NCBI GenBank assembly: GCA_029834535.1 | Contig: JAQMWT010000687.1 | Coordinates: 1 to 64,000, forward strand | Reading direction: 5' to 3' | From: Chrysophaeum taylorii | Taxonomy: Eukaryota > Sar > Pelagophyceae > Pelagomonadales > Pelagomonadaceae | DNA: 64,000 nt | In this document: in pieces, positions 2,901 to 60,627 of the stretch | Numbering within the stretch: the stretch's first letter is position 1 | Layout of the letters: each line of letters begins with the position of its first letter | Position numbers and translations under genes: made by a program | The notes under the pieces: model-generated | What the model saw: only the letters and a program-made list of their open reading frames with translations | Databases searched by the model: none | Told to the model about the DNA's origin: nothing

Positions 2901-2939
2901 GGGAAAAGATCGAGCAAGACCTCATCACCATCGGTGCCT

Positions 2940-5090: not shown

Positions 5091-5289
5091 TCAAGGATGA
5101 TCCAGGATCCCACTAAATGGGAACCGCCAGAAGTTCCTATGCTTCCGCTTCAACAGATGCGCCGGGGACGGCTCATGCTTTTTCTGCTGCCCCCGACAAT
5201 CAAAGTGGACGTTCCGCCGGATCCTGAACCTGAACAGGAGCCGAAAGTAAGGAGCGAGCCGAATGTGCGCGTCAAAGGTGAGAAGATCA

Positions 5290-6890: not shown

Positions 6891-7159
6891 ACGAGTTTGG
6901 TGAACCCTTGAACCACGCGTATCTAGTGTGCCAGGCTTCCTCGCCCTGTTGATGATGAAGGAGTACCTTTACCTGGGTGCCATGTCATTCGTCGTTTGTT
7001 ACGACGGGTTGCCTGTGGAGGAAGAGGAAGAAGACGCATGATCCGATGCAATGGTCGTCTCATGCTACGAAACAACGTCAGAAGCAACGACTGCAGACCC
7101 AGCCTAGTATTTTCCGTGATGCCGATGATTTACCAAGAGTACATCGACAAGATTGGATA

Positions 7160-11874: not shown

Positions 11875-12528
11875 CGCCCTCACAGAGCGAACTCAGGGGA
11901 GCTCTGGACCAAAAAAGGTCGAAGAATGAAAAGAGCGGATTAACGCCCTCAGAAGAGGAACGAGGGTCTGAAGGGAGAGTCGGAGCGACAGTAGGTGTTG
12001 GGGCGAAAGGGGTCGGCGGTGAAGGAACAACTTGCGGCTGTGGTGCTGGTGGGGATATGGTGTCGGTGCATGGGGGTGTACCAGGGTCGTAACCGTAGAT
12101 GGAGTAGGTGTGGGGGGTGATACGAGGAGCATCTGGGTGGATAGGCGGTGGAAGGGAGTTGAGGATTTGCTGAAGAACAGCATCCTGGGCTCGTTGAGTG
12201 TCGTGGAGGATTGCGAAGGAGGCTTCTTGGGCGGAAAGATGAGCTTTTGCTTGGGCGAGATCAGATTTGGTTTCGTCGTGAGCGCGGGCTTCGGCGTCAA
12301 GGCGGGCGTTGGCGCGGGCGAGTGCGGTTTGAGTTGCGATCAATGCGTGGTAGAGAACTTCGGGGTTCATAGAGGAGGGAGGAAGGGTGGTGTTGTCGGA
12401 GAAGTTGTCAGGGCCGTCACAACCATAGGTGGCGTAGTTGCGCGGGTGGAGGCGTTGGTCTTCGAAGAGGAGTGTGTCATGTACCGGGGTAAGAATAGCA
12501 GTGGTGTCGGAGATGGGGACTTGAGTGT
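11875..12528 (-). pseudogene. gag-like ORF, C-terminal side, non-autonomous LTR element
   Basis: An open minus-strand frame includes a helical, Ala/Gln-rich segment (about 12370-12200; motif ARANARLDAEARAHDETK) that should form a coiled coil. A Pro/Thr-rich tail follows and runs into the LTR. It lies on the left side of the Copia A insertion. No enzymatic domain was seen. It probably packages RNA with help from a partner element. Fossil interrupted by the insertion. Confidence 0.55.
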
Positions 12529-12723
12529 TAGAGATAGCAAATCTGAACTAGGGTTAGTACCCCCTATTCTAGGGTTAGTTCACTTAACTTTGCCACCTTT
12601 TGATTTAAGATAACGCTGTGTTATTCACCCCGGCTGTCCTCGATTAAGAGACAGATTCGAGACAGACCTCCACTGTTCTCACGCTCTGCTGAAGGGTAAC
12701 ACAGTTGTGATTATTGTTCTCTA
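12529..12723 (+). repeat. 5' LTR of Copia A
   Basis: 195 bp from TAGAGATAG to TTGTTCTCTA. It contains a GGGTTAGTACCCCCT block and a CTGAAGGGTAACACAG block found in all LTRs of this family, including the solo LTR at 42145-43369. It is followed by GGTATTGGGCACC, similar to GGTTTGGGCCC after the 5' LTR of the non-autonomous element, so this may be a shared primer-binding region. Confidence 0.9.
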
Positions 12724-12727: not shown

Positions 12728-14756
12728 TTGGGCACCAGTCCCGGTATCAGCAGAGCCTCAGGATTTCCAGACAAGCCCCGCTCACTGACGTTCCTGAACC
12801 CAAGCAAAATGCCAACCAATCAAGAACTCCAGAAGGAGATGAAAGAACAAGAAGTTCGTTTCAAAAGAGACATGCAACAACAAGCTCAAGCGTACGAAGC
12901 TCGGCATAAACAAGAGATGCAAGACCAAGAAACTCGCTTGATGGCACAATTCACTGCTCAATTAAGCGCGTTGGCCACCCAAGTGCAAGCAACGTAAGCA
13001 CCACCACCTGCCGTCGCTGCTGCGGCTCCGCCTCCCACTCCGGCTCAACAAGATCCCAAGTCTAAGATCAACACCTTTAGTGACCCACCAAGTGCCGTTC
13101 TCAAGTCCATGGACTCGGCGCAAGTCACACCCCAAATGCTTTCGTTTCGCGTCATGCAATTGTTCGTCGAACATCTGATGCCGGAAACAGGCATAACTCA
13201 GTACTTCCTACAGGGCTTCTACACGTGGGAATCCGTCCTGCGCGGATCTAACGATCTCGCTGACGCTCTCCTAAGCCACTGTATCGACGAATACGACAAG
13301 GACCCCGACAACCACTCTACCGCCGGGAACACGCCAGATTTCCAAGGCCGCTACGTCTACTACAAGGGTGTCTACCGCAAGTTCGGCAAGCACTTCCTGG
13401 ACAACGTCTACGAGCCAAAACTTAAAGAACTCAAGGACCAAGACAAGGACCCAACCGATATGACGAAAGGCAAGTTATATCCAACTACTCAACCCCATCT
13501 CCAAGGAAAAGAAGCCGACTTCATCGTATATCTCCGCGAGACTGTACACCCCCTATTTCGCCGTTTCCTACATGCCGGTAGCGACTCCGTCAAGCACCCA
13601 GCATACGACGAAATCGATGCACTCGGATCCTCCTACCCGATAGGACTCGAATTTGTGCTTCAAGTTCGCCTCGCACTCGATAAGCACACGGGCCAGAACC
13701 ACATCCACCATGCGCATTATGTTTACTATGCCTTTCTGGACACGTCGTTCAACCCCGAAATCCATGAGCCAGCTCACTACATCGACTACATGCGTCATGT
13801 CCAGCAACAGCTGCGCCAGATCACCACGGACACTTCTCTCCAACTTCCCGACGACAAGATCCTCGAAGAAATTCACCAAATTCTCCGCTTCAAGTACCCC
13901 CCGAGCTTGCTTGGGGGGTACTTGAAGCGGAGAACTCCCGCAAGCTTGGGGGGTACTTGAAGCGGAGAACTCCCGCGCCCCAACACACATCAAGGGCATT
14001 GCACGTCTTGCGAACTGTCTGCGCAATCCCAACGACTCGCTGTTACTCGACGAAGACAAGGACGCCATCCACCACCTTCCTAAGCTCATCGCCCGCATCA
14101 CCGTCATTTCAACGTTTGAGCGCAACTTTTGGGCTCACCTCAAGCCTCACCCCACTCTCAACTTCAAGCCTTTGCGCTTCGTTACGGACTTTGGTCGTCT
14201 GCCAACAAAGGACAAAGACAACCCCCGCTTTCGCTCCCGCCGTCATGGTCTCCACCTCACCGAAGACGATGATGACACCTCTCCCTCTGAAGAGACACCC
14301 CACCGGACCCCATTGAAGACACCGACCCCGTCGCTGTTTTTCTCACGGAGGCCAATCTTGATCAAGAGGAAGACAATGACCTTATTCACCAACTACACGC
14401 CTACCGCAAGAAGCAAATCTCGCGGCACGTCAAAAAGCCCCCTCCAGGCAAAAAGCCTCCTAATCCTCGCTCCCCGTCTTACTACGACGTCAATGACAGT
14501 CCTAAGCCCAAGGCCACCCCTGTCACCGCACCGAAGAACAAGCACCGTCCCCGCGCTCCTCCTGTCACCCCTGACAAACGTGAGCACCCACATCTTCGCA
14601 AGGTCACCTTCCCCACACAACCTCATCCACCCAAACCATCCACTCCCGACCGACGCTTCAAGGTCCCCCTTCGTGAAGTCCGTCGCAAGCTCCAAACCAT
14701 AGGGAGTCTTAGCCAAGCCGGTCGCCAACATACGTCCAGCTCCGAGCATATGAACA
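12728..14756 (+). pseudogene. gag region of Copia A
   Basis: The first part (12809-12997) is a charged coiled coil (KEMKEQEVRFKRDM, RHKQEMQDQETRL). The main body (13109-13960) has a helical capsid-like stretch with QLFVEHLMPETG and YFLQGFYTWESVLRGSNDL, and a basic, Pro-rich tail follows to about 14750. No CCHC knuckle was recognised. Gag builds the particle that packages element RNA. The same blocks occur in Copia B (62793-61268, minus) and in the fragment 53800-54064. Fossil. Confidence 0.75.
13883..13932 (+). repeat. 20-bp perfect inverted repeat with 10-bp loop
   Basis: Arms 13883-13902 and 13913-13932 are exact reverse complements around a 10-bp spacer. The right arm is part of a unit of about 33 bp that is directly repeated at 13909-13941 and 13944-13976. 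The DNA or RNA could fold into a strong hairpin. Copia B carries only the simple sequence at the matching place. Confidence 0.8.
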
Positions 14757-15060
14757 AGCTAATCAACCTCATAACCACCATTTCCGACGAGATACTTCTT
14801 TCCGAAGCCGAAAATGACGCCGCCGAATTCCTCCAGATGTTAACGTCCGATCCCCAAGACGATCAACCTGATGAGGGCGAAGCCGAAACCGATCAACAAG
14901 GCGACAACGGACATCTCGGTTTCTACGACGACAACGGTCAGATAAACCTCTACGACGATACCGTTCCCGAAACCACTGATGAAGATAACTCCGCCGAAGA
15001 CTACGCCAAACGTCACAGTGACTACATGCGTGCTCTCCACCAGAGTCGGCTTTTTCGCTG
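14750..15060 (+). pseudogene. acidic linker ORF of Copia A
   Basis: A short Asp/Glu-rich stretch has a repeated GFYDDNGQINLYDD-type motif. Copia B has the same with more repeats (LYDDQGQLGLYDD, 61271-60909, minus). It sits between gag and protease. Function unknown; conservation in both copies shows that it is an original part of the family. Confidence 0.5.
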
Positions 15061-15179
15061 ATGGTTGCCGACGACGCCTGTGCCGCCGACCACACCTTAC
15101 TTCATCAGGCACCAAACCTCCAGATGACGAATTTCCCGACCTCATCAACTGTTTCCACAAGAGTCGCAGATTTTCTTTG

Positions 15180-15620
15180 TGCAGCTTACACCCCAGAAAA
15201 GACCTCAAAGAAGACTAGCTCACTGCACGGATGCAATGGTCCCGGCACTGAAACCTCATTGATTGACGGTGGCGCATCTTTTTGCTTTACGCGCACAATT
15301 CAAAATTTTGTTCCCGAGACCATACGCCGCATTCCCGAACACACCACTCATATGGGCCGAGGGACTCTTACCAGCCACTTCATCGGTGTTAAACCGTTGT
15401 ATCTGCAGGCTGCAGGTCTCCCATCAAAGGATACAACATACAAAACCGGTTACGCCTTATATCTCGTATTTATGGTCGTCCCGCAATTCAGACAAGGTCT
15501 TCAAGTTATCGCAACATCTCAGCTCAAAGCTCTGCATGTACAAGCAACAGACCCGCCACTGCCCCACGAGCCCTACCTTTATGAGCTTCTAAAGTCCTCA
15601 ACCTCAGATCCCCACAATTA
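15180..15620 (+). pseudogene. aspartic protease of Copia A
   Basis: The active-site motif SLIDGGASFCF (about 15257-15290) matches the D-S/T-G-A loop of retropepsins, and Copia B has SLLDGSASFALL at the same place (about 60745-60710). A GNG/GCNGPGTE stretch precedes it. The enzyme cuts the polyprotein in the particle. Fossil. Confidence 0.65.
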
Positions 15621-15899
15621 TGTAACACTCCTAGGAAAGACCGCCGTCGTACTTGCCACTCGCAAGCCTAATGGCCTGTTGTCCCTGCCATCCGACCCAA
15701 AGCAAACATTCGCCACTGTGGTCAGCTTTCACACAAGAAAACGAATGTCACTCAAGGATGAGATTGCACACATCACACAGCATGTCGCAAAGACACGCTC
15801 ACAATCGCACACGCTTGACTTCGCGAAGTTACAAATCATTCACTGTATCTCAACGAACTGCTCAACCTCCAATCTCATGTCGTCCACTACGCCTTCAAT

Positions 15900-17648
15900 G
15901 GCTCAGCAGACCTCTCTGCGCAGTCGCAAACCCCTCTGCTCAAAACCGCCATTATTGCAGGTGGACTCCACCAGGAAGGTTTCGACACTTTTCGCAAACG
16001 ATTCGACAAACGCCTTACTGTCGTGGTCACCTGCGAAATCAACGATATCCTGCGCACCCGTGCGCAACAACTCTTTCCGCACGCCAAGCACTATGCGGAC
16101 CTCAGAAAACTCAATTCGGCACTCCAAACCGGCAAAATACGACTCCCTACATTCGACCTGGCAGTTTTTACATTGCTCTGCCAACATCTGAGTGTAATGC
16201 AAGAATACGACGGCTATGCCACTCCGGTCACCGCCGACCTTTTCGTCAAAGAACAAACCCGCTTCGTTCGTTGCACGCTCCCGACCTATGCCATTGTCGA
16301 GAACGTACCTCCCAACCCCCGAACTCACGACGAGTATGCTCAACTCGCAAAAGGTTATCAGCGCTTAGGCTACTTCCGCCACTCCGGCGTCTACAATGCC
16401 TCTGCCTTTGGTGACGTCATCAGCAAGACACGCTATCTCGCTGTGTATGCCCGACACCCGCTCACAGGCTATAACCTCGAGAAAACCGCCTCTCCTTGGT
16501 TAACCTCGCCTCCGAGCATGGTTCCTCTTCTGGACCCCAGTCACACCATCCCTGACGATCTATGGATCGCCAAACCCGCCCTTCATGGTACCGTGCCCCG
16601 CTCCACATTGGACTACTACCAGCACAAGGCTACCTACTCCTACAAGCCCGCCAACGCCTCGAAACTCTCGATTTCCGAGAATGCCCGCATCTGCCAAATG
16701 CTCGCACGTCTCACCAAGCCCTTCACGGATCTCGGTCTAGATGCCGACGGCACCCCCTACGCCACAATGGCGTCCATTTCCCACCTACTGGTTTTCACGC
16801 TCCTGCACAACCATTTGTCGCAACACCCCACTCTCGCCGCTTGGAACACCATCCGCTGTTTTCATGCCTCAGAGTCTCAATGTGCTTACCATTTGGATGG
16901 AGCCATCACCGGCACCGCCGCTACTGCCGTCGCATGTGGATACTTCTCGCGCGCCTCCCTCACACTACATTCCAGGCCCCCTCAGACTTTGGACTGTTCC
17001 CATCAACCCGCAGTCTTCTCCCCAACGCACTCCTTTTCCCTGGATGTTCCCAAGGGCACCGCCTTTCTGGTCGTCGCTTACACCACCTCCTTGGCCGCCG
17101 CTCACAGCTGTTCGCGCCCGTCCACTTGGGTCCACTATATGAATCGTTCGCATCCTGGCTTTGCCGCGATCGACTCACAAGGGCGAATTGCTCTCGATGA
17201 CCCCAAGGGACTCCTAATGTCCAAAGCACGTCCCACTTACGCGGACTATGTCGGCCACATCGGAGACACGCCTCAGAAAAGCACAAGGTGCTACTCGGTC
17301 ACTGGCTCGTACCCCACCAACACGAGCTACTCCAATGCCTTGCTGCTGATCTCTCCAGACCACATACGTTACGCGACCCTCAACGAAATCGCAGAGTTTG
17401 GACACCACTCGGACCCGGAACTGCTCCGACTATTCAAACAGCACCCGCCGTACTTCGCGTTCAAGGCACTGGCCAACGCCGCCCCGCACCACATGTTGCA
17501 GGCAAAGTACAGCGCTGTCCTCGCATTCCACGAATCGCACCACCACGTGAACCTTCGCGTCGAATGGGCCACAATACGCCATGGCATCCCCAGCCCCGGA
17601 GACATCAACCAGGTTGCAGAAATTCAGTCATCTCCAGCCGTCTCTTAG
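15900..17648 (+). CDS. cytosine-C5 DNA methyltransferase domain in Copia A pol
   Basis: Mostly one open frame (16023-17648, 541 codons); the first motif lies just upstream. Motif I: IIAGGLHQEGF (about 15951-15983). Motif II: VVVTCEIN then QLFPHA (about 16020-16085). Motif IV: DLAVFTLLCQHLS with the catalytic Cys near 16179. Motif VI: YAIVENVPP, exact ENV, near 16299. Motifs VII-VIII: LGYFRHSGVYNASAFG then SKTRYLAVYAR (about 16365-16455). A target-recognition-sized spacer of about 300 residues follows. Motif IX: RYATLNEIAEFG (17367-17402). Motif X: FKALANAAPHHML (17460-17498). The family transfers methyl from AdoMet to cytosine C5 in DNA. It lies between protease and integrase. The target sequence and activity cannot be told. 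Related part in Copia B at 60070-58500. Confidence 0.85.
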   Translation, partial: GSADLSAQSQTPLLKTAIIAGGLHQEGFDTFRKRFDKRLTVVVTCEINDILRTRAQQLFPHAKHYADLRKLNSALQTGKIRLPTFDLAVFTLLCQHLSVMQEYDGYATPVTADLFVKEQTRFVRCTLPTYAIVENVPPNPRTHDEYAQLAKGYQRLGYFRHSGVYNASAFGDVISKTRYLAVYARHPLTGYNLEKTASPWLTSPPSMVPLLDPSHTIPDDLWIAKPALHGTVPRSTLDYYQHKATYSYKPANASKLSISENARICQMLARLTKPFTDLGLDADGTPYATMASISHLLVFTLLHNHLSQHPTLAAWNTIRCFHASESQCAYHLDGAITGTAATAVACGYFSRASLTLHSRPPQTLDCSHQPAVFSPTHSFSLDVPKGTAFLVVAYTTSLAAAHSCSRPSTWVHYMNRSHPGFAAIDSQGRIALDDPKGLLMSKARPTYADYVGHIGDTPQKSTRCYSVTGSYPTNTSYSNALLLISPDHIRYATLNEIAEFGHHSDPELLRLFKQHPPYFAFKALANAAPHHMLQAKYSAVLAFHESHHHVNLRVEWATIRHGIPSPGDINQVAEIQSSPAVS

Positions 17649-19290
17649 CAGAGGAAGACCTGAACCTCACCTCCCTCTTCAATGCCGTTGCGGATGCTCA
17701 CCATGATGCGATCCGAAAACCAAGCAACTCGACAAGCCTCGAGACACTTCTTGCCGAGGCAACCGTTGCTAAGATCCGAGTCGACAAGCGACCCAGCCCC
17801 CCAGCGCTTCGACTGCCGCACTGCCTCCATTGCACCAGCCCGGCACCACTCAGCACGCCAACAGAGTGCTTTTGGTCACTCGCTGGCACCGCATACACCA
17901 CCAGCAACCAGTGATTCTTCGCCGCACGATTGCCGCTAATGTAACGAATCTCCGCCCAGGTGATGATCGGTATCTGCAAGACTGCAGTGAATGCAAGCGC
18001 TGCCAATCGCATGTAAGCTTCAGTCACAAAAAACACTTCCTGGTCACAGGATGAACTGGCCTATGCTCCTGGCCAACACCTCCACATGGATGTGTCATAC
18101 CCGAGCATCCGGAAGTGCTACGGCGGATTTCGCTATATCATGCACTTCGTGTGTATTATCTCATCACACAAATGGGTCTATTTCCTACGGAAATTAGACG
18201 CACAGGATGTTCTGGCCGGCATCCTCTATGTGGTCAATGTGATTAAAGTCGAATTCGATGTCCATGTGAAGATTATATCCTCCGACGCATTCTCAGCTTT
18301 TCGCTCTGACGCCTTCCACCCTCTCAAGGTGCAGCTTGGTCTCCAATTCCAAATCCTTGGTCGCCACCTCCACCAGCGGAACTTTGCTGAAAACATTATC
18401 AAGGAAAACACCCGAGGCACCGTAGTTCGTCTCCTCAACCTTCGCAGTGTACGCATCGATGGAAAGTCTATTGCCGCAGAGTATTATCACCCATTTGCTC
18501 TCCTGCATAAGATCCAAGCCGACAACCAGCGCACTCATGGACTGCCCTCGCGCACACACATGCCATGCACCGTTCCCCGGCGTATCATGTCACCCACGGC
18601 ACCGCTCTTGAAGCTCCCCCCCTTTGGCGAACCTGTCACTTTTGTCTACCCTCAAAGTCACAAGCTGGAACCCTCCAGCGTCTCTGCCTCTTACTTTCAT
18701 AGTAACAACTATCTCCCGAACCTACCCGGAACGGATCGATTTATCCGAGATGTTCACAGCTCTATCTTGCTTGTACATCAAGGGCGATATGGAAAAATCG
18801 TCACCTCAAACGACTTTCATGTCGACGCAGACATGCCAGTCAACCGCAACGAGGAGATCGAACGGATCAAGGCACTTGCACAGATCCCACCAAAGGCACG
18901 ACAAGAGGACCCGCTACCAGCTATAAGCGAACAGCAAATGCCGGAAGTTAGACAGGAATCAAAAAATGAGGGCGAGACTCACGAAGACGAGCACGATTAC
19001 CAACCTAGCGATGACGACAAACACAAAGCACTGGATCCAACTCCCGCTGCTGATTCAAGTCCCGTCAGCGACGCGACACCTGAACAGGATTTTTCGTTCC
19101 TCAACCGGCCACCTCCACCGGATGGTAGCATCCCGATGCCCAAACGAATAGATCGCCTAGAGGTTGTTCTCGACGATTCGGGTTTTACTCCAGTTCTCGT
19201 GCATCGCAACCAAAGCGATAAACTAAGGCAGATCTCAATGACGAACGTGGATTCCGCATCCCTAAGGATCAACTCTACATCGTGAGACGT
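17645..19290 (+). pseudogene. integrase of Copia A
   Basis: The HHCC zinc-binding head is seen as RWHRIHHQQP then LQDCSECKRCQSH (about 17880-18010). The catalytic core follows: MDVSYPS (first Asp, 18086), KIISSDAFSAF (second Asp, about 18268) and RNFAENIIKENTRG (Glu, about 18378). A Ser/Asp/Pro-rich tail (RPPPPDGSIPMPKR) leads to the RT. Integrase preceding RT is the Copia hallmark. Copies of the same region lie at 58250-57250 (minus) and 62980-63390. Fossil. Confidence 0.85.
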
Positions 19291-21120
19291 GTTGACGATG
19301 GAAAACTCTTCACCAGACGCATTCTCGCCTCAGAGTACGGTCGCAACTGGAAATACCAGCAAGAGCAATCCACGGCTCACGCCACAGCCAACATGTCCAG
19401 TACATTGATGTTCCTCATCAGTGTCAGCGCTCTGCACCAGGGCCACGCCGCCAGCATCGCCTCTGCTCTCAACATTCGAAGAGAAGCTAAGCCGCCTAAT
19501 GATGTCCCGAAAGGATGTCTCCTAGCAACTACCACACAAGACTATGGTATCATGGGCGGCACCGCACTGAATTTGCAGAGAGAAACCGACGCGGAACTCT
19601 TGTACGTTGACTTCCCAAGGAAGCCATACCACTCGTCTGTGTTGGTTGACCACCTTGATAACGACAATTCTGTTCTCGACTACATGTGCCATGACGAAAT
19701 GTCACCGGCAGAGTACTATGCGCGTCAATGGAACCAAGAACTCTGTAGTATGTGCTCCTCTCTTTTATGGGACATCTCCGCGCATCAGCACTACCATCTA
19801 GCTTCTCGTCATAGGCATGCCTTCATGCATGATTCTGGCGAACTCGGGCGCCTCTTCCTAAGTCAAAGTGATCCGAATCAAGACATTCTACGAGAAGTCA
19901 TGGACTATGATTTGCAGCACCTCGATCACGTCGTGTTACAACTTGTGACCGCTGAAGATATCGTCTATGAGCCGGGAAAGATTGTCGAACTTAAAGGACT
20001 CAGCAAGGAAGATAAGTTAAAGCATATCGCTTCGATTCGCAAGGAAATTGAAGGATTGTGCTCCAATGGTGTATTCCAGCTTGAGCCTTTACCACCAGAC
20101 CGTTCGTCCATCTCGACGAAGCTCGTGCTGAAGATCAAGTATTTGCTGACGGCACTCCAGACCGCTATAAAGCCCGTCTAGTCGCCCGAGGTTTCTTGGC
20201 ACGTGTAGGTATTGACTTCTATGCCACATCCTCACCAACCGCAATGCTCGCTACCAACCGGCTACTGCTCCATTGCTGTGAAGCACAAGCTCCCTGTCGC
20301 GCACGCGGACATTCCCCAGGCATTCATCCAATCCGCACTCGATCGCCCGGTATGGATCGACTTTCCTCGAGGAATACGTGTCTCTCCAAATCTTGTCCAG
20401 CAGATACAGAAGAACCATCCAGAGTCGAAACTCGCTCTCCGACTCGTCAAGGCTCTCTATGGCCTCAAACAGTCAGCTTTGTTGTGGAACATTAAGCTCG
20501 ACTCATTTCTTCGACAGCATGAGTTCGAACGCTCACAAGTCGATACTTGTCTTTATATCAATTGGGATCGATCTATCAACCAATGGGTATTACTATCCGT
20601 TTCAGTCGATGACCTATTGATCACTGGTACCAACACTGCCAAAATTGCGTCTCTTCGCACCGCTCTGGAGACCGAATATGGCAAGGGTGCATGGCATAAC
20701 AACATCCGATCCTTTCTTGGCATCGATGTCCACTACAATGTCTCCGCTGGTCATCTCACTATGAATGTAGCAGCGAAGATCAACAAGATGCTTGCTGAGC
20801 ATAAGCTCAATTTACATAGCCCAGACGACCCCTATTCGGACATCCTCGTCCAAAAACCTTCCAATAAACTTCTCTCAGACTTGGCTCCTACCTTAAACGT
20901 ATTACGCCAGAACTCGCCTTTCTACTGTGGCACCAGCATTTATTTGTCTGTCACATGTCGGCCGGACATCACCACCTTGTGCAACAAATGCTGCAAAGGG
21001 ATGCACAACCCCGACCAAACACACCTTCTGCACTTATATGTTTTACTTCGCTATTTAAAGGGCACTCCGAATGACTCCCTTGACTATTCATCAGACAGCC
21101 CGTCTATTACCCCCTTTGTT
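19290..21120 (+). pseudogene. reverse transcriptase of Copia A
   Basis: Copia-type RT blocks: VAHADIPQAFIQSAL (about 20298-20340), LVKALYGLKQSALLW (about 20445-20488), LLSVSVDDLLITGTN (about 20590-20634, catalytic VDD) and FLGIDVHYNVSAGHLTM. A segment upstream (19282-20181) joins integrase to RT and includes LYVDFPRKPYHSSVL. Long open frame 20212-21759. Fossil of a once active element. Confidence 0.9.
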
Positions 21121-21800
21121 CAGAATCTGATTGCTCACTATCCTGAACTGCATCATCTTCGTTCACCTATTATCTGTTTTGCTGATGCAAGCTTTGCTGA
21201 TCGTTCTGACCCTCGCTTACGATCCAATTCTGGTGCATGTATCTTCGTCTTTGGCAGTCTCGTATTTTGGTCTAGCAAACGCCAGACTCTCACTGCGAAG
21301 AGCACCATTGAAACTGAACTCATCGCCGCCAGCGCCGCCGCTGATGAATGTCACTGGTTATACAAGCTTTTCTCCTCCCACCCCTATCTGTTTTCGTGTG
21401 ATCAAGCTCACGCTATCCCCTTACTTATTGACAACGCTAGCGCACTACATGTCGCTAATCATCCTAAAGTCAGTGCTCCTTCTCGTCATATCAACTTACG
21501 AGAATTTCGCATTCGTGACTACCAAGCTAACTCGATCATTAGACCTCTCTGGTGTCCTACTCTCTACCAGGTCGCTGATCATTTTTCGAAGCTCCTTCAA
21601 CGCACCTTATTTCACAAGTTCAAAAACGCCTACGGCGTTCATTCCACTTCATCCTCCCCACCATCCCATCAAGTCACTCTTTCAGCTGCTCTTCCACCGT
21701 ACGACTCTGTCCAGAACACTCTCTACATTCTTGTCGATGGTAAGACGCTTCCAGCTTAGTTTGATCCAGATTTCGCTCCCCACGTTCAATCTGTGAGGGC
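21120..21800 (+). pseudogene. RNase H of Copia A, first copy
   Basis: IICFADASFADRSD (first acidic residue), then TAKSTIETELIAASAAADE, then LLIDNASALHVANHP and RHINLREFRIRDY match the Copia RNase H pattern. The frame ends at 21759, followed by TGTGAGGGCG and the second LTR at 21802. Confidence 0.85.
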
Positions 21801-21801
21801 G

Positions 21802-21996
21802 TAGAGATAGAAAATCTGAACTAGGGTTAGTACCCCCTGTTCCAGGGTTAGTTCACTTAACTTTGCCACCTTTGATTTAAGAAAACGCTGTGTTATTCAC
21901 ACCGGCTGTCCTCGATTAAGAGACAGATTCGAGGACAGACTACCACTGTTCTCACACTCTGCTGAAGGGTAACACAGTCGTGATTACTGTTCTCTA
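21802..21996 (+). repeat. internal LTR of Copia A
   Basis: 195 bp, TAGAGATAG to CTGTTCTCTA. It is followed directly by pol sequence (CCAGCATTAA), not by a target duplication, so it does not end the element. Confidence 0.9.
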
Positions 21997-22884
21997 CCAG
22001 CATTAATTTATCTGTCACATGTCGACCGGTCATCACCGCCTTGTGCAACAAATGCTGCGAAGGGATGCACAACCCCGACCAAACACACCTTCTGCACTTA
22101 TATGTTTTACTTCGCTATTTAAAGGGCACTCCGAATGACTCCCTTGACTATTCATCAGACAGCCCGTCTATTACCCCCTTTGTTCAGAATCTGATCGCTC
22201 ACTATCCTGAACTGCATCATCTTTGTCCACCTATTATCTGTTTTACTGATGCAAGCTTTGCTGATCGTTCTGACCCTCGCTTACGATCCAATTCTGGTGC
22301 ATGTATCTTCGTCTTTGGCAGTCTCGTATTTTGGTCTAGCAAACGCCAGACTCTCACTGCCAAGAGCACCATGGAAGCTGAGCTCCTCGTCGCCAGCGCA
22401 GCCGCTGATGAATGTCACTGGTTCTACAAGCTTTTCTCATCCCACCCCTATCTGTTTTCGTGTGATCAAGCTCGCGCTATCCCATTGCTTATTGATAACG
22501 CTAGCGCACTACATGTCGCTAATCATCCTAAAGTCAGTGCTCCTTCTCGTCATATCAACTTACGAGAATTTCGCATTCGTGACTACCAAGCTAATTCGAT
22601 CATTCGACCTCTCTGGTGTCCTACTCTCTACCAGGTCGCTGATCATTTTTCGAAGCTCCTTCCACGCAACTTGTTTCACAACGTCAAAAATGCCTACGGC
22701 GTTCACTCCACTTCATCCTCCCCACCATCACATCAAGTTGCTCTTTCGGCTACTCTTCCACCGTACGACTCTGTCCAGAACACTCTCTACATTCTTGTCG
22801 ACGGTAAGACGCTTCCTGCTTAGTTTGATCCAGATTTCGCTCCCCGCGTTCAATCTGTACAGATTGAACGCGTCTGTGAGGGCG
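21997..22884 (+). repeat. second copy of the Copia A pol 3' end
   Basis: It repeats 20935-21801 (end of RT, all of RNase H, purine tract) at high identity, with scattered differences, and is then followed by LTR 22885-23080. An extra short inverted copy of the GATTGAACG block occurs at 22850-22873. The simplest reading is recombination or strand transfer between two family members before or after insertion. Confidence 0.85.
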
Positions 22885-23080
22885 TAGAGATAGAAAATCA
22901 GAACTAGGGTTAGTACCCCCTATTCTAGGGTTAGTTCACTTAACTTTGCCACCTTTTGATTTAAGAAAACGCTGTGTTATTCACTCCGGCTGTCCTCGAT
23001 TAGGAGACAGATTCGAGGACAGACTACCACTGTTCTCACGCTCTGCTGAAGGGTAACACAGTTGTGATTACTGTTCTCTA
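22885..23080 (+). repeat. terminal 3' LTR of Copia A
   Basis: 196 bp, TAGAGATAG to CTGTTCTCTA, followed by AGTGT, the exact duplicate of the 5 bp before the 5' LTR at 12529. Confidence 0.9.
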
Positions 23081-23950
23081 AGTGTGGAGTGGTAGTGGTG
23101 GGTTCGACATCGGTGGCGAGGAAAGCGAGCAGGGTGATGGTGATGGGGTGGTACCTGGAGAGGTAGAGGAAGGTGGGATTGTGGTGGGGGTGACGACCGG
23201 GATTGTCGGTGGGACGATCGGAACGGTCGGTGTGGTGACCGGGGTGGTCGTGGCTTCGGGTGGTGTGACTGGAGTGGCCAGGGGTGGAGGTGGTGGTGCA
23301 GAAGCGGCGGCTAGAGCTGGAGGAGCTAGCGGGACGGTCGGTGCGGTGACCGGGGTCGTCGGGGCTTGTGGTGTTGTGGCCGGTGTGGTCGGGGCGTGTG
23401 GTGGTGAAGCGGGAGCGGCGGCAACATCGGGAGGAGCTGCGGCGGCTGGAGGGGGGGTGCTGCGGTCAAGAGCGGCGAGTTCGTGACGCAGTTGAGTGCT
23501 GCTCTGTTGAATCAGGGCGTTGCTGGTGGCGACGGCGGCGAGGCGCTGGTGCAAGGTCGGCAGCTGCGGGAGTTGCTGGTCAAACATAGCGCCATAGGCC
23601 GCGAGGGCAGCGTAGAACCGGTCATAACAGCCGTCCTTAGCAGCGCGAGCCGCGGCTAGCCGGGCACGGTGGGCGGCGGAGTCCGCGGCGAGTGCGTCGA
23701 GTTCATCGTCGTCGCTGGCATGGTCGGCGGCGAAATCGTCTTCGAGTGGTGCGATCGCTTGGTTCGGATCTTGGTCGTGGTTGCGCGACATCTTGTGCTG
23801 CGACTCGCTGGACGTGGTTGGGGTCTGTGGGTCTTGACTTGAGTTGGGGGGGTGGCGTCGAAGTGAACTTCGATAGCCTGTCGAGGTCGGGACGTCGAGC
23901 GAGCGATTGTCTCCGAGTGACGCGAGGTGAAAGGACTCCGCGACTGTCAC
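23081..23950 (-). pseudogene. gag-like ORF, N-terminal side, non-autonomous LTR element
   Basis: A 290-codon minus-strand frame has an acidic helical start (LEDDFAADHASDDDELDAL), a helical segment (FYAALAAYGAMFDQQLPQL) and then a long low-complexity tail of Pro, Ala, Thr and Val. No enzyme domain was seen. It is cut off by the Copia A insertion at 23081. It probably encodes a particle or RNA-binding protein. Composition is much more GC-rich than the Copia. Confidence 0.55.
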
Positions 23951-26616: not shown

Positions 26617-26729
26617 GCACCTCCCTGACCTGTCAGCCTCGCCAGCAGGCTATCGTTGTCGCGTGTCGACCTAGTAGGGGCGTTGGTTATTCTTCCTTAC
26701 ATAATCATAATCCGAGAGTCGAAAGGGGA

Positions 26730-27228: not shown

Positions 27229-27239
27229 TGAGACTCACG

Positions 27240-34045: not shown

Positions 34046-34189
34046 CTTGGTGCAATGTGACATCTCTTAAGAAATGTGATAAGGGCGATATCAGGATGAA
34101 CAAGTGGTGCACCTCAGAGGCCACATAAGGTGGCACAACGTGTTCATCATTGACACGAGGTGTCTGGACTTAGCAGACTTGGTCAAAGC

Positions 34190-36900: not shown

Positions 36901-36981
36901 GGACCGCACGAGTCGGACGCAACACCCTCGGACGTCAACGACGACGCCGAAGACTCGACTACGCGCGCTCAGGAGGAAGAT

Positions 36982-54064: not shown

Positions 54065-54273
54065 TAGAGAACAGTAATTTATACTGTGCTACCCTTCGGT
54101 AGAGTGAGAGCAGTGGTAGGCTGCCCTGGTATGCGGTAGTTGTCCTGTTCTTAACAACGAGGACAGCACTGTGTTGATAACACAGCGATGTTTTCTGATT
54201 ATTAGTGTGAGATGAGAAGGTGCTAACCCTATGATAGGGGGGTACTAGCCCCAAATTGAATTTTGTGTCTCTA
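54065..54273 (-). repeat. 3' LTR of Copia B
   Basis: 209 bp with TAGAGA at 54065 and CTCTA ending 54273. It is followed on the minus-strand upstream side by GGTAGGGCG and TTCAATCTGG, similar to the purine tract before the Copia A LTRs. It contains the GGGGTACTAGCCCC block equivalent to the family's GGGTTAGTACCCCC. Confidence 0.85.
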
Positions 54274-54349
54274 CGCCCTACCAGATTGAACTCGGGATCG
54301 AGCAAAATCTGGATCAAACTAAACAGGACGAGATCTCCGTTTCGTATGG

Positions 54350-56110
54350 TGGAAGAAAGTGGAAAGACGGACTTGGCGAGATGGAGGTGAAGAAGAGGTG
54401 GAATGAACACCATTGGCGTTCTTGAATTTGTGAAACAAAGTGCGATAAAGAAGTTCCGAAAAAATGATCGGCAATCTGGTACTGAGTAGGACACCAAAAG
54501 GGACGAATCACCGAATTGGCTTGGTAGTCACGGATGCGAAATTCTCGTAAGTTAATATGACGAGAGGGAGCACTGACTTTAGGGTGATTAGCAACACGTA
54601 ATGCGCTAGCATTGTCGATAAGCAGGGGGATAGCGTGAGCTTGATCACACGAAAATAAATAGGGATGGGAAGAAAAGATCTCATGAAACCATTAACATTC
54701 ATCCGCAGCTGCGCCAGCGGCGTTGAGTTCGGCTTCCATGGTGCACTTGGCAGTGAATGTCGGTCGTTTACTAGACCAAAATGCGGGGGTCAAAACTGTC
54801 AGCGAAACTGGCATCAGTGAAACAAATAATGGGCGAACTAAGATGATGCAATTCGGGATAGTTGCTGATCAAATGATGAATAAATGGCGTAATGGAAGGG
54901 CTGTCGGATGAATAATATAAAGAATCAGTCGGAGTACCCTTCAAGTAGCGAAGTAAAACAGACAAGTGCAGAAGATGAGTCTGCTCAGGATTGTGCATCC
55001 TTTACAGCATTTGTTGCACAGAGTTGATATATCAGGGCGACATGTGACGGAGAGGTAGATACTAGTGCCACAATAATGAGGAGTGTGTTTGCGAAGAATG
55101 TCGAGGGTAGGAGCCAAATCGGAGAGAAGCTTAGCCGAAGGCTTCTGATTGAGCAATTCGGAGTGTGATACGTCCGAACCGCGAATGTTGAGCTTATGTT
55201 CGGCGAGCATTTTATTGATCTTTGCTGCGACATCCATAGTGAGATGACCAGCGGATACATTGTAATGCACGTCGATACCAAGAGAAGATCGAATATTGTC
55301 GTGCCAGGTGCCTTTGCCATATTCTTTCTCCAACGCAGTGCGAAGAGAGGTAATTCTGGCGGTGTTGGTACCAGCGATCAAAAGATCGTCGACAGAAACG
55401 GATAGGAGAACCCATCTGTTGATAGATCGATCCCAGCTTATATAGAGACAAGTGTCGACTCGCGAGCGTTCGAAATCGTGTTGTCAAAGGAACGAGTCAA
55501 GCTGGATGTTCCACAACAAAGCTGACTGTTTGACACCATAGAGTGCATTGACGAGTCGCAGTGCTAGCTTGGACTCTGGGTGGTTCTTCTGTATCTGCAG
55601 AATGAGGTTCTGCGAGACACGAATACCACGAGGCAAATCGATCCATACCGGACGATCAACGCCGATTGGATGAAGGCCTGTGGGATGTCCGCGTGCGCGA
55701 CGGGGAGCTTGTGCTTCACGGCGATGGCGAGCAATAAACGGTTGGTGGCGAGCATCGCGGTCGGTGAAGAGGTGGCATAGAAATCGATGCCGACGCGTGC
55801 CAAGAAACCTCGGGCAACTAGGCGAGCCTTATAGCCTTATAGCGGTCCGGAGTGCCGTCAGCAAAATACTCGATCTTTAGCACGAGCTTCGTCGATATTG
55901 ACGAACGATCCGGCGGCAATGGCTCCAGCTTGAAGACGCCATTAGAGCATAATCCCTCAATCTCCTTGCGAATTGAAGCGACGTGTCTGAGCTTATCTTC
56001 TTCGCTGAGGCCCTTGAGTTCGACAATTTTCTCAGGCTCATAGACAATGTCATCAGCAGTCAGCTGCAACACGACGTGGCCGATGTGCTGCAAGTCATAG
56101 TCCATGACTT
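54350..56110 (-). pseudogene. reverse transcriptase and RNase H of Copia B
   Basis: Minus strand: PVAHADIPQAFIQSAL (about 55690), LRKHTPHYCGTSIYLSVTCR (about 55100-55040) and DIVYEPEKIVELKGLSEEDK (about 56050) match Copia A closely. RNase H blocks PIICFTDASFADS and HAIPLLIDNASALRVANHPK-like residues lie at 54830-54550. Confidence 0.8.
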
Positions 56111-57249
56111 CTCGAAGAGTGTCTTGTTTCGTGTCACTTCGACTTTAAAAAAAAAAGACGACCGAGTTCGCCGGAGTCGTGCATGAAAGCATGTCTATGA
56201 CGAGAAGCTATGTGTAAGTGCTGCTGCGCGGAGATGTCCCATAACAGGGAGGAGTTCATACAACCGAATTCTTGGTTCCATTGCCGCGCATAGTACTCTG
56301 CCGGTGACAAATTGTCATGGCACACGTAGTTCTCGAGGGCAGAGTTATCGTTATCCAGATGGTCAACTAGAACAGACGAATGATGCGGTTTCCTTGGGAA
56401 GTCGACATGCAAGAGTTCGGCGTCTGCTTCTCTCTGCAGATCCAGCGCGTTGCCAACCAATATGCCGCAATCTTGAGTAGTGTGCGCGAGGAGGCATCCT
56501 ATCGGTACATCGTCTGGTGGCTTAGCATGTCTCCTTATGTTCGATCCGGACGCGAGGCTGGCGGCATGGCCTTGGTGCAAAGCGCTGACACTGACAAGGA
56601 ACATCAATGTGCTAGACATGTTGGCTGTGGCGCGTGCCGTGGGCTGATCCTGTTGGTACTTCCAATTGCGATCATACTCTGAGGCGATAATGCGCCTTGT
56701 GAACAACTGCCCATCGTCAACACGTTTCACGATGTAGAGTTGATCTTTAGGAATGCGGAAACCGCGGTCGTCCTTGAGATCTGCCTTGAGTTTGTCACTC
56801 TGGTTGCGATGCACAATGACTGGGGTTAAGCCTGAGTCGTCGAGAACAACCTATAATTGGTCGTGTCGCTTTGGCATCGGGATACTGCCGTCCGTTGGAG
56901 GAGGCCTGTTGAGGAACGAAAAGTCCTGTTCAGGTGGCTCGTCACTATCTCAGCTTGGACTGGTGGCAGAGTTTTGAGCTGGATCCGTGTCCTTATCGTT
57001 AGGTTTGTCGTCGTGGTCGTGATTGCGAGTCTCGCCCTCATTCGGTGATTCCTGTCTAAGTTCCGGCATCGGCTGGTTGCTGATGGCTGGGAGCGTGTTA
57101 TCTTGCCGTGAGTTTGTTGGAGACTGTGCCTGTGCTTTATTGAGCTCAATTTCCTTGTTGCGATTAACAGGCATATCTGCGTCGACGTGGAAGTCGTTGA
57201 CGTGACGATTTTCCCATACTTCCCTTGATGCACAAGCAGGATGGAGCTG

Positions 57250-58250
57250 TGGACATCGCGGATAAATCTGTCAGTGCCCGGGAGGTTAGGCAGATAATTG
57301 TTGCTGTGGAAGTAGGAGGCCGAGACGCTGGAGGGCTCCATTTAATGGCTTTGCGGGTATACGAAAGCGACTGGTTCGCCAAATGGGAGGAGCTTCAAGA
57401 GTGGTGCCTTTGACGACATGATGCGCCTGGGGACGGTGCAAGACATGTGAGTGCGCGAAGGCAGTCCATGGGAGCGCTGGTTGTCGGCTTGGATCTTGTG
57501 CAGCAGAGCAAACGGATGGCAATACTCGGCGCTAATGGGCTTCTCTTCGATGCGAACGTGGCGCAGATTCAGAAGGCGAATGACGGTGCCCCGGGTGTTT
57601 TCTTTGATGATGTTTTCCGCAAAGTTCCGCTGGTGTAGGTGGCGACCAATGATTCGAAACTGGTGCCAAGTTGCACTTTGAGCGAGAGTGAAAGGCTTCG
57701 GGCGGAATGTCGAGAATGCGTCCGATGATATCATCTTAGCATGTACATCAAATTCGACCTTTACGACGTTGACCACGTAGAGGATTCCTGCAAGAACGTC
57801 TAGTGCGTCCAGTTTCCGCAGGAAGTATACCCATTTGTGGGCCGATATAACGCACACGAAGTGCATGATGTAACGAAATCCACCATAGCATTTACTGATG
57901 CTCGGGTAGGACACATCCATGTGGAGATGTTGGCCAGGGGCATAGGCCAATTCGTCATGCGACCAAGAAGCGTTCTTATGGCTGAAACCGACGTGTGACT
58001 GGCAGCGCTTGCAGTCGGTGCAGTCCTGCCGATACGGGTCATCACCAGTGCGGAGGTTAGTGACATTATCTGCGATCGTGCGGCGAAGAATCTCGGGCTG
58101 CTGGTGGTGAATGCGGTGCCAGCGGGTGACCAGGAGCACTCTTTGGGCGTGCTGAATGGTGCCAGGCTTGTGAAAAGGGGGCAGCGCGGCAGTCTGAGTG
58201 CGAGGAGGGGTGGCTCGTTTGTCGACTCTGACTTTTGCAGCGGTGGCTTG
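57250..58250 (-). pseudogene. integrase of Copia B
   Basis: The frame 58463-57342 contains VTRWHRIHHQQPEILRRT, YRQDCTDCKRCQSHVGFSH (zinc head), MDVSYPSISKCYGGF (first Asp), KMISSDAFSTF (second Asp) and QRNFAENIIKENTRG (Glu). It is the same arrangement as in Copia A. Confidence 0.85.
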
Positions 58251-58499
58251 AGCAAGGAGCGTTTCGAGGTTTGTTGAGTTTGGCGACTTTCGAATCGCAG
58301 CATGGTGAGCGTCGGCAACCGCACTGAAGAGGGAGGTGAGGTGGAGGTCTTCAACTGCTAGAAGGCGGCCAGAGATGTTGGAGAAGAATTCCGTGATCTG
58401 ACAGATGTCTCCTGGGCTAGGAATGCCATTGCGTAGTGCGTCCCATTCGATGTGAAGGTTCACGTGGTGATGCGAGGCGTGATGTGCCAGAACAGCGCT

Positions 58500-60070
58500 G
58501 TACTTGGCCTATAGCATGTTATGTGGGACAGCGTTGGCCAGTGCCTTGAATGCGAAGAATGGCGGGTGCTGGCGGAACAATCGGAGAAGCTCTGGGTCCG
58601 AATGGTGTCCAAATTTTGCGATTTCGTTGAGAGTCGCGTATCGGATGCGATCGGGGGAGACCAGCAGAAGTGCGTTGGAGTAGCTCGTGTTGGTGGGGTA
58701 CGAGCCAGTGACCGAGTAGCACTTGGTGCTTTTCTGGAGCGTTTCGCCGATGTGGCCGACATAGTCCGCGTAAGTGGGACGTGCTTCGGACATTATGAGT
58801 CCCGTGGGGTCATCGAGAGTGATTCGCCCTCGTGAATCGATCGCGGCAAATCCGGGGTGTGAGCCATTAATGTAGTGGGCCCACGTGGAGGGACGCGAGC
58901 AGCTGTGCGCGGCAGCCGAGGAGGTGGTGAAGGCCACGACCAGAAAAGCGGTGCCCATGGGGACAGACAGGGAGAAGGCGTGCTGCGGCGAGAAAGCGGC
59001 GGTTTGGTGGGAGCAGTCCAGGATCTGGGGGGGCACGAATGGAGCGTGAGCGAGGCGCGCGTGAAGTAGCCGCATGCAAGGGCGGTCGCAGCGGTGCCGG
59101 GGACGAGTCCATCCAGCTGGTAGGCGCATGTTGACTCGGAAGCGTGGAAGCAGCGAAGCGTATTCCAGGAGGCGAGAGTGGGGTGTTGCAGCAGCTGCAA
59201 GTGGTTGTGCAGTAGTGTAAATACCAGGAGGTGCGGGATAGAAGTCATGGAGGCATAGGGGTGCCGTCTGCGTCCTGTCCAAGATCCATGAAGGGCTGCT
59301 TGAGACGTGCGAGCATTTGGCAAATGTGTACATTCTCGGAAATCGAGAGTTGAGCTGCATTGGCGGGTGTGTACGAGAAGATAGCCTTGTGCTGATAGTA
59401 ATCCAAGGTTGAGCGAGTCACAGTGCCGCGAAGGGCGGAGGCGGGTATCCAGAGGTCTTCTGGGATGGTGTGACTACGGTCCTAGAAGGGAACCATGCTC
59501 GGTGGGGATGTCAACCAGGAGGAGGCGGTTTTCTCGAGATTGTAGCCATCTAGCGGGTGCCGAGCGAAGACGGCGAGATAACGGTGCTTGCTTGTGGCGT
59601 TGCCGAAGGCTGGGGCGTTGTAGACACCGGAGTGTCGAAAGTAGCCCATACTTTGATAGTGTTTGGCGAGTTGCGTGTACTCGTGATGACTTTTCGGGTT
59701 TGGCGGAACGTTCTCGACAATGGTGTATGTCGGGAGCGTGCAACGAACAAAGCAGACTTGTTCTTTGACAAAAAGATCGGCAGTCGCTGGAGTCGCATAG
59801 CCATCATATTCCTTCATTACGCTTAGGTGTTGACGGGGCAGGGTGAAGACAGTCATGTCATGTCGAGGTAGTCGTAGTTTGCCAGTTTGAAGGGCGGCAG
59901 TAAGTTGCCTGAGATCCCTGTAATGCTGAGCATCTGGGAACAATGGTTGCGCGCGGGCGTGCATGGTGGGGTTAGTTTCACATGTGACAACGACAATAAT
60001 GCGTTTGTCGAAGCGTTTGCGAAATGAAGTGAAGCCTTGTTAGTGGAGTCCACCTGCGATAATGGCAGTG
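58500..60070 (-). pseudogene. cytosine-C5 methyltransferase region of Copia B
   Basis: Minus-strand blocks in the same order as Copia A: TAIIAGGLH (about 60070-60045, motif I), TYTIVENVPPNPKSHHEYTQ (about 59735-59680, motif VI with ENV), MGYFRHSGVYNAPAFGN and HRYLAVFARHPLDGY (about 59650-59550, motif VIII), RYATLNEIAKFGHHSD (about 58650-58605, motif IX) and FKALANAVPHNML (about 58550-58512, motif X). The middle spacer (about 59350-58790) is also conserved, so the whole domain belonged to the family. Fossil. Confidence 0.8.
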
Positions 60071-60627
60071 TGCAGCGGAGGGGGTTGTGTGAACACAGTG
60101 AGGTCCGCGGTGCCAGTGAGCACATATTCTAAATAGGGGCTCGGCAGTTTGAAAGATTCCGTCAGAAAAGCAGAATGGGCTTGCAATTTGGCAAAATCGA
60201 GAAAATGGGACTGCGAGCGTGTTTTTGCGACTTTTTGCGTACTGTTTGCGATTTCATCCTTGAGGGACATCTCGGGACGAGTGTGGAAGCTGACCACATT
60301 GGCAAATACATGCTTAGGATGAGATGGCAGTGACAGGAGGCCGTTAGTCTGTATATGAGCGATAACTACAGCAGTGGTTTTTAAAAGTGTTTTGTAGTCA
60401 TGAGGGTCCGAATAGAATTTTGCAGAAGCTCATATAAATATGGCTTGTGCGGCAGCGGCGGGTCCGTTGCCTGAACATTTAGGGCGTTTAGCTGTGATGT
60501 CGCTAAAACCTGCAAACCTGGTCGGAAATGCGGGACGATCAGGAAAACCAAATATAATGCGTAGCCAGTAGTGTCTTGATGTCATGTGATGAGAGACCTG
60601 CAGCTTGCAGATATAGTGGCTTTGTAC

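What the first reader, a model, noticed from the sequence alone, without database searches (positions are those of the whole stretch)
15900..17648. Copia element with a full cytosine-C5 DNA methyltransferase between protease and integrase
Seen: motifs in the correct order (IIAGGLHQEGF, VVVTCEIN, TLLCQHLS, IVENVPP, YNASAFG...TRYLAVYAR, RYATLNEIAEFG, FKALANAAPHHML) with a spacer of about 300 residues where a target-recognition domain should be. Known: C5 methyltransferases (Pfam family DNA_methylase) have ten such motifs; capture by retrotransposons has been reported in a charophyte and in dinoflagellates. Inference: the element may methylate its own cDNA or new copies, hiding them or altering silencing.
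Basis: partly seen in the sequence, partly recalled or inferred. Interest (0 to 1): 0.92.

Follow-up and report, generated by a model that had tools for sequence, protein, structure and literature searches.

The report
Copia retrotransposons carrying a DNA methyltransferase
In an unnamed alga, one family of "jumping genes" carries, inside its own protein, an enzyme domain that resembles the bacterial enzymes that put methyl tags on DNA; natural selection has kept the domain in many copies, so the element probably tags some nucleic acid, perhaps its own new copies.

Summary
Confirmed: window 15900-17645 (+) encodes a cytosine-C5 methyltransferase domain in Pol of an LTR Copia element (LTRs 12529-12723 and 22885-23080, 5-bp duplication AGTGT), between a protease-like motif and integrase. 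The Pfam match is just over threshold here (22.7 bits, cut-off 22), stronger in other copies (best 46). It ends after motif VIII; motifs IX-X rest on residue pattern. The 70.8-Mb plastid-bearing host has 99 merged family places. In copy L039, protease motif to start of RT is one open frame. Among 38 copies the domain is under purifying selection (dN/dS about 0.2); 35 keep the catalytic Cys. Nearest detectable relatives are bacterial and phage C5 methyltransferases; the host's DNMT2 and DNMT5 are not matched. A second abundant Copia family seems to lack the domain. Retrotransposons with C5 methyltransferases are known (LINE, DIRS, Gypsy), so this is a new variant: Copia, bacterial-type enzyme, new host. 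cDNA self-methylation is plausible but unproven; no clear CpG-decay footprint. The window copy is broken (altered motif IV, frameshifted Pol).

The parts
12524..12528 (.). 5' target-site duplication AGTGT
   Evidence: read; the same 5 bases follow the 3' LTR
12529..12723 (+). 5' LTR (195 bp), ends TAGAGA...TCTCTA
   Evidence: 95% identical to 22885-23080
12809..15061 (+). gag-position region, broken over several frames
   Evidence: tblastn of P0003 (frame upstream of Pol in L039) to 13382-15058; ATG at 12809 read; 12809-13381 had no tblastn match to P0003; no Pfam match; called gag by position only
15022..15834 (+). start of Pol, with the protease-like motif (LIDGGAS in L039)
   Evidence: 97% identical to P0002 1-271; motif reading recalled, no profile match
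15825..17633 (+). methyltransferase part of Pol, open frame
   Evidence: PF00145 E 7.6e-5; 97% identical to P0002 269-871
15951..15983 (+). motif I-like IIAGGLHQEGF (divergent)
   Evidence: position in A1; motif name recalled; not covered by the Pfam match
16176..16184 (+). motif IV, LCQ here (Pro in 34 of 38 copies, catalytic Cys in 35 of 38)
16299..16307 (+). motif VI ENV
16425..16454 (+). motif VIII-like KTRYLAVYAR; both Arg kept in 38 of 38
16455..17366 (+). spacer of about 300 residues at the target-recognition-domain position; its first part aligns to a phage methyltransferase
   Evidence: A1 profile 79-259 to phage vir335 59-246; no Pfam match of 16467-17309
17367..17402 (+). motif IX-like RYATLNEIAEFG
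   Evidence: pattern only; no profile match
17460..17498 (+). motif X-like FKALANAAPHHML
   Evidence: pattern only; no profile match
17624..19228 (+). integrase region (zinc-finger-like HHCC read by eye, core rve), in three pieces over two frames
   Evidence: rve E 6.1e-4, 20.4 bits, below its cut-off of 32.6; P0002 870-1404
19225..21759 (+). reverse transcriptase region (RNase H end not tested)
   Evidence: RVT_2 E 3.9e-24 in frame 20209-21759; P0002 1404-1801 to 19225-20412
20932..21996 (+). first unit of a 1.07-kb tandem duplication (3' end of pol plus an LTR copy at 21802-21996)
   Evidence: 94% identical to 21996-23080
22885..23080 (+). 3' LTR
23081..23085 (.). 3' target-site duplication AGTGT
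54238..62775 (-). second element of the same family on the other strand, 77-82% identical DNA in the longer pieces
58377..60114 (-). its methyltransferase region, broken by stops and frame changes; motif IV reads PRQ (catalytic Cys absent)
   Evidence: PF00145 31 bits for 59482-60039

Best explanation
A lineage of LTR Copia elements in a plastid-bearing alga carries a bacterial- or phage-type cytosine-C5 methyltransferase in Pol, between protease and integrase. Shown: domain homology, position, one shared open frame from the protease-like motif to the start of RT in copy L039, LTRs and target-site duplication, dozens of copies, purifying selection, kept catalytic residues. Inferred: Pol is made together with Gag; the methyltransferase sits beside reverse transcriptase and integrase in the particle and methylates cytosines of the new cDNA, or of DNA near the integration site, before or during integration. 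That mark may shield cDNA or tune later silencing by the host, which also has DNMT5. My rough probabilities: a real C5-methyltransferase domain of this Copia family 0.95; active in some copies 0.75; cDNA or new copies as main substrate 0.45.
For: Profile matches to PF00145, PHROG and PADLOC MTase_II. Phage DNA methyltransferase at E 3e-6 over 217 aa, extending past motif VIII. RVT_2 E 3.9e-24 after an rve match. One frame of at least 1801 aa with methyltransferase, rve and the start of RVT_2. LTRs and AGTGT duplication. 99 merged places. dN/dS: median 0.21 in 78 pairs of 13 chosen stop-free copies; in 38 copies, pairs with dS above 0.2, medians 0.18, 0.21 and 0.24 for three methyltransferase parts. 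Catalytic Cys 35 of 38, ENV Glu 36 of 37, motif VIII Arg 38 of 38. Weak hint: TpG/CpA O/E is 1.13-1.15 in the two elements against 0.82-1.08 in the other stretches taken. Precedent: retrotransposon DNMTs methylate CG de novo (PMC5890265 abstract).
Against: No profile support for motifs IX-X or the spacer. Motif I is divergent. Structure prediction failed (mean pLDDT 29.6). No clear CpG footprint: O/E 1.00-1.09; C/T differences 0.113 at CT, 0.106 at CG, 0.080 at CC, 0.055 at CA over all pairs of 30 loci; 0.064 at CG against 0.046 elsewhere in 61 close pairs, and no CG excess at fourfold sites. Integrase (0.12) and RT (0.09, 9 copies) are more constrained than the methyltransferase. No expression, methylation or biochemical data. 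Both window copies are broken.
Confidence: 0.6

Rival explanations
1. The domain is an active methyltransferase, but its substrate is the element's RNA (or a primer tRNA) rather than DNA.
For: Some C5-methyltransferase families act on RNA (DNMT2, DNMT6; passages of PMC12344493). A particle protein sits beside packaged RNA (inference). No clear CpG-decay footprint in DNA.
Against: Nearest detectable relatives are annotated as DNA methyltransferases of bacteria and phages; host DNMT2 is not matched.
Confidence: 0.15
2. The domain acts in trans on host chromatin or against host DNMT5, changing silencing around or of the elements, not cDNA as such.
For: The host has a DNMT5-type gene, so cytosine methylation may be part of its silencing; no cDNA-specific footprint was seen.
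Against: No direct evidence; the Pol-embedded position suggests action in the particle (inference).
Confidence: 0.15
3. The domain has lost catalysis and is kept as a nucleic-acid-binding or structural part of Pol.
For: Divergent motif I; both window copies with altered motif IV; constraint a little weaker than in integrase and RT.
Against: Catalytic Cys in 35 of 38 copies, ENV Glu in 36 of 37 and motif VIII Arg in 38 of 38.
Confidence: 0.15
4. Assembly artefact or chance motif match in an ordinary Copia.
For: The window copy is only 0.7 bits over the Pfam cut-off.
Against: Independent libraries and tblastn agree; 99 merged places on many contigs.
Confidence: 0.02

Closest known systems
KnitGypsy-Dnmt3 of Klebsormidium nitens (PMC5890265)
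   Same: LTR retrotransposon with a C5 methyltransferase in the Pol frame, several copies, purifying selection (passages)
   Different: Gypsy, and its enzyme is of the Dnmt3 family; here Copia (integrase before RT) and a PCQ-type enzyme nearest to bacterial and phage enzymes
SymbioDIRS-Dnmt3 and SymbioLINE-Dnmt of Symbiodinium (PMC5890265)
   Same: C5 methyltransferase carried by retrotransposons; SymbioLINE enzymes are an orphan group (parts 1-2 of the text)
   Different: DIRS and LINE elements. The paper says Symbiodinium Copia elements lack any DNMT domain. SymbioLINE shows fewer CGs; this family shows no clear CpG loss.
Bacterial and phage C5 methyltransferases (M.HhaI, HaeIII, phage vir335 gene; chains 4dkj/8c56, which I recall as M.MpeI)
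   Same: best sequence matches, over motifs II/III-VIII
   Different: stand-alone proteins of 327-403 residues in these calls; here a Pol domain with a spacer of about 300 residues before the motif IX-like pattern
Second Copia family of the same genome (P0005, at least 101 copies)
   Same: integrase upstream of RT; integrase about 25% identical (L061), RT about 40% (window)
   Different: 1 of 101 scored copies has a listed methyltransferase within 5 kb upstream on the same strand; the 2 kb read upstream in one copy align to integrase only

Membership tests
LTR Copia | integrase before reverse transcriptase in Pol | tested here: met
   rve then RVT_2 in the window and in L039; both rve scores are below the curated cut-off
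LTR Copia | RVT_2-type reverse transcriptase | tested here: met
   E 3.9e-24, 86 bits, cut-off 31.6
LTR Copia | LTRs and short target-site duplication | tested here: met
   (this one element; duplication not looked for in other copies)
LTR Copia | aspartic protease upstream | tested here: inconclusive
   DGGAS motif read in P0002; no profile match
LTR Copia | tRNA primer-binding site after the 5' LTR | not tested
   sequence after the LTR was read but not compared with tRNAs
C5 DNA methyltransferase (PF00145) | profile match over the curated cut-off | tested here: met
   window 22.7 bits against 22; 57 of 57 listed genome rows over the cut-off, two of them host genes
C5 DNA methyltransferase (PF00145) | catalytic Cys (motif IV) and Glu of ENV (motif VI) | tested here: met
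   family: Cys 35 of 38, Glu 36 of 37; the window copy keeps both but has LCQ
C5 DNA methyltransferase (PF00145) | motifs IX and X after a target-recognition domain | tested here: inconclusive
   pattern present and conserved, no profile match
C5 DNA methyltransferase (PF00145) | 5mC-forming activity | not testable with these tools
   needs biochemistry
Dnmt3-type retrotransposon enzymes (KnitGypsy, SymbioDIRS) | Dnmt3 motif IV PCN (recalled) and Dnmt3 as nearest relatives | tested here: not met
   motif IV has Q after Cys in 33 of 38 and N in 2 of 38; A3 profile against the PDB: 12 of 12 chains at E<=10 are named HhaI or 'cytosine-specific methyltransferase', none Dnmt3; no tree
Gypsy (KnitGypsy) | RT before integrase | tested here: not met
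Host DNMT2 / DNMT5 | detectable similarity to the host's own genes | tested here: not met
   A1 profile: DNMT2 E 0.77, DNMT5 not reported at E<=100, against 2.7e-9 for the best phage enzyme, in a 7-sequence set; hhalign with DNMT5 E 0.34

The most novel reading that the evidence does not exclude
Copia elements of an alga captured a phage- or bacterium-derived C5 methyltransferase, not a host DNMT, and use it as a particle enzyme to write a methylation pattern on their own cDNA before integration: a retrotransposon that borrows a restriction-modification-type enzyme to set its own epigenetic state.
Probability: 0.3. Interest if true: 0.85.

Novelty: new variant of a known kind. Interest (0 to 1): 0.62.

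Why it matters
It adds a case of a C5 methyltransferase carried by a retrotransposon, in a superfamily (Copia) that the main study reported as lacking one in Symbiodinium, and with an enzyme nearest to bacterial and phage types rather than Dnmt3. Repeated capture argues that methylating nucleic acid helps some retrotransposons. The host also has a large Copia family apparently without the domain, a natural internal control for methylation, copy-number and insertion comparisons.

Tried and rejected
Homologues: three protein searches gave nothing: P0001 at E<=0.01, P0002 residues 290-900 at E<=0.1, alignment A1 at E<=10; 7,991-7,997 candidates were scored each time. Viral and prokaryotic contig scans with A1 found no relative (15 and 36 pattern matches, none confirmed). 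P0001 alone against the PDB: no match. P0002 against the PDB: one uncharacterized chain, E 0.26. A1 against the PDB: one chain, E 0.2. A methyltransferase frame of L048 against the PDB: 7 chains at E<=1, five HhaI, one HaeIII and one channel protein.

Structure: AlphaFold2 on the window-only alignment A2 gave pLDDT 29.6; no fold search was run on it and the second job was not used.

Host DNMT as donor: profile comparison of A1 with DNMT5 aligned only a short stretch outside its methyltransferase; phmmer and hmmsearch matched phage and plasmid enzymes, not DNMT2 or DNMT5. Those references were picked by similarity, so this set is biased; the PDB search is the fairer control, and its 12 chains are weak (E 0.0021-0.19). 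No tree with DNMT1, DNMT3, CMT or RID was built, because I had no such sequences.

Domain-free copies: two RT copies without a listed methyltransferase were looked at: one keeps the methyltransferase's C-terminal end and then stops matching, the other does not match; inconclusive. 47 of 82 RT places have a listed methyltransferase 1.5-6.5 kb upstream (I left out 8 of the 90 rows as further pieces of listed copies, and used 75 of 83 rows plus 26 of 57 rows). Both searches score only the best candidates, so the misses say little.

Host name: the 18S search did not complete (six tries); an rRNA pattern found the mitochondrial contig.

Full report
WHAT IS THERE. The window is contig C687 of an unnamed 70.8-Mb assembly in 697 contigs. 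Window 15900-17645 (+) is an open frame of 582 residues with the quoted motifs in order. It matches PF00145 with E 7.6e-5, 22.7 bits against a cut-off of 22, over residues 55-186. PHROG 363 (2e-6) and PADLOC MTase_II (1.3e-5) agree; NCBIfam dcm gives E 1.4e-5 but stays far below its cut-off. Other copies are stronger: 46 bits for one divergent copy, 21 of 25 copies or pieces matching PF00145 with best E 2e-12. The profile match ends after motif VIII. Motif IX-like and X-like patterns follow a spacer of about 300 residues, but neither they nor the spacer match a Pfam profile as separate pieces.

THE ELEMENT. LTRs of 195-196 bp (95% identical) lie at 12529-12723 and 22885-23080, flanked by AGTGT on both sides. 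A 1.07-kb tandem duplication at the 3' end (94% identical units) gives a third LTR copy at 21802-21996. Downstream of the methyltransferase come an integrase core (rve, E 6e-4, below its cut-off) and RVT_2 (E 3.9e-24), the Copia order. In copy L039 a frame of 578 aa (gag by position; no Pfam match worth the name) overlaps a Pol frame of at least 1801 aa that holds a protease-like DGGAS motif, the methyltransferase, integrase and the start of RT. The window's copy is broken: its Pol aligns to that frame in six pieces over different frames, and motif IV reads LCQ. A second element on the minus strand (54238-62775, longer pieces 77-82% identical) has stops and frame changes in the domain, and its motif IV Cys is absent.

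COPIES. P0001 finds 83 matches (75 of 770 candidates scored) and PF00145 finds 57 (123 of 474 scored), two of which are host genes. Merged, there are 99 retro-methyltransferase places; a few may be split copies or duplicated contigs (C10 and C297 give nearly identical rows). 28 of the 57 Pfam hits overlap P0001 hits. Of the 27 others that are not host genes, I held six as DNA (L003, L005, L007, L008, L046 and the window's second copy); their main pieces align to P0001 at 66-88%. The other 21 were not read.

SELECTION. For 13 stop-free copies that I chose (78 pairs; L023, L030, L032 and shorter pieces left out) median dN/dS is 0.21, and 0.18 for the 43 pairs with dS above 0.2. Picking stop-free copies biases this downward. 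For 38 copies without that filter, stop codons skipped, pairs with dS above 0.2, medians are protease region 0.18; methyltransferase 0.18, 0.21 and 0.24 for its three parts; integrase 0.12; linker 0.21; RT 0.09 (9 copies only). These 38 come mostly from the best-scoring hits, so they lean towards well-kept relatives of the window copy. The domain is under purifying selection, somewhat weaker than integrase and RT. The catalytic Cys is kept in 35 of 38, Pro before it in 34 of 38, ENV Glu in 36 of 37, both motif VIII Arg in 38 of 38.

ORIGIN. tblastn against phage records: 20 records, best a Caudoviricetes DNA methyltransferase, E 3e-6, 25% identity over 217 aa, present under two accessions; the rest have E 3e-3 to 0.9, annotated as DNA methyltransferase or methylase, hypothetical or not at all. 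Against plasmids, 661 records match weakly; 20 were listed (E 6e-3 and weaker), those with a name being cytosine methyltransferases. The A1 profile aligns to the phage enzyme past motif VIII into the next region. The A3 profile against the PDB gives 12 chains at E<=10, all named HhaI or cytosine-specific methyltransferase, none named DNMT, although the library holds DNMT2 and the DNMT5-like 7r76. The scores are weak (best 0.0021), so 'bacterial/phage type' is a lead, not a placement on a tree. The host's DNMT2 (L001; 1g55 E 3.7e-39) and DNMT5 (L040; 7r76 E 1e-275; SNF2 domain) are not matched.

CONTROL FAMILY. A second Copia family (P0005, window 51877-53109 minus; at least 101 matches, 101 of 1480 candidates scored) has RT about 40% identical. 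Of 101 copies one has a listed methyltransferase within 5 kb upstream on the same strand, which could be nesting. The 2 kb read upstream in one copy (L061) align to the integrase only (25%, E 2e-15); that stretch reaches only about 175 residues above the integrase zinc finger, so a methyltransferase further up in that copy is not excluded.

FUNCTION. CpG O/E is 1.00 for element 1 and 1.09 for element 2, against 1.30 for a Gypsy-like stretch, 1.27 for 1-8000 and 0.98 for 44000-54000; TpG/CpA O/E is 1.13 and 1.15 in the elements against 0.82, 1.03 and 1.08. Over all pairs of 30 loci C/T differences are 0.113 at CT, 0.106 at CG, 0.080 at CC and 0.055 at CA, with ACG the highest triplet (0.174). 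Among 61 close pairs they are 0.064 at CG and 0.046 elsewhere; at fourfold sites CG (0.206) lies between CT (0.181) and CC (0.256), and G/A differences at CG (0.228) lie between TG (0.126) and GG (0.305). This is no clear footprint of CpG methylation and decay, at most a faint one. It does not exclude methylation that is brief, in another context, or well repaired. There was no control family for these counts. The best mechanism I can offer is methylation of cDNA in the particle; that step is inference, helped by the published activity of other retrotransposon DNMTs on CG (PMC5890265 abstract).

HOST. Contig C697 holds two Photo_RC genes and C696 a cox1 in three pieces, a bacterial-type SSU rRNA and a match to the permuted mitochondrial 5S family, a form described in brown algae (PMC11528492 passage). 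A photosynthetic stramenopile is likely but not shown.

PRIOR WORK. PMC5890265 (parts 1-2 of 7 and passages): SymbioLINE-Dnmt, SymbioDIRS-Dnmt3, KnitGypsy-Dnmt3; Symbiodinium Copia 'lacks any DNMT domain'. [quoted passage not shown] I cannot tell whether this is a slip or new Copia cases. PMC12477816 (passages): an N4C/N6A-type methyltransferase in an Ectocarpus Sola1 DNA transposon. PMC9998398 and PMC9033089 (passages) gave no such element. The searches showed me, in listings and the passages named, no stramenopile Copia with a C5 methyltransferase; the library is partial and I read few of the papers.

VERDICT. Real, conserved within the family, a new variant of retrotransposon-borne C5 methyltransferases; mechanism open.

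Noticed in passing
window 20932-23080: 1.07-kb tandem duplication at the 3' end of the element, giving three LTR copies; units 94% identical, about as diverged as the LTRs.
   Followed up: partly
window 51877-53109 (-): Fragment of a second, abundant Copia family (at least 101 scored matches) apparently without the methyltransferase.
   Followed up: partly
window 42145-42227 and 43259-43370: Two halves of an LTR of the methyltransferase-Copia family, about 1 kb apart: a possible solo LTR with an insertion.
   Followed up: no
window 34189-42144: Element with 250-bp end repeats (94% identical) and weak matches, below cut-off, to Tf2/Gypsy-type integrase C-termini; CpG O/E 1.30.
   Followed up: no
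window 26723-27230: C-rich array with a spacing of about 17 bases (CCCCGCACCTTCCCCGT type).
   Followed up: no
L040 2968-9000 and L001 1498-2556: Host DNMT5 (with SNF2) and a DNMT2-type gene; among the 57 PF00145 rows these two are the only ones recognised as host genes, and 21 rows were not read.
   Followed up: partly
L051 1685-1785: Match to the permuted mitochondrial 5S rRNA family on contig C696; hints at a stramenopile host.
   Followed up: partly
G000 contigs C10/C297 and C25/C521: Nearly identical hits at nearly identical coordinates on pairs of contigs: duplicated contigs or haplotypes in the assembly.
   Followed up: no
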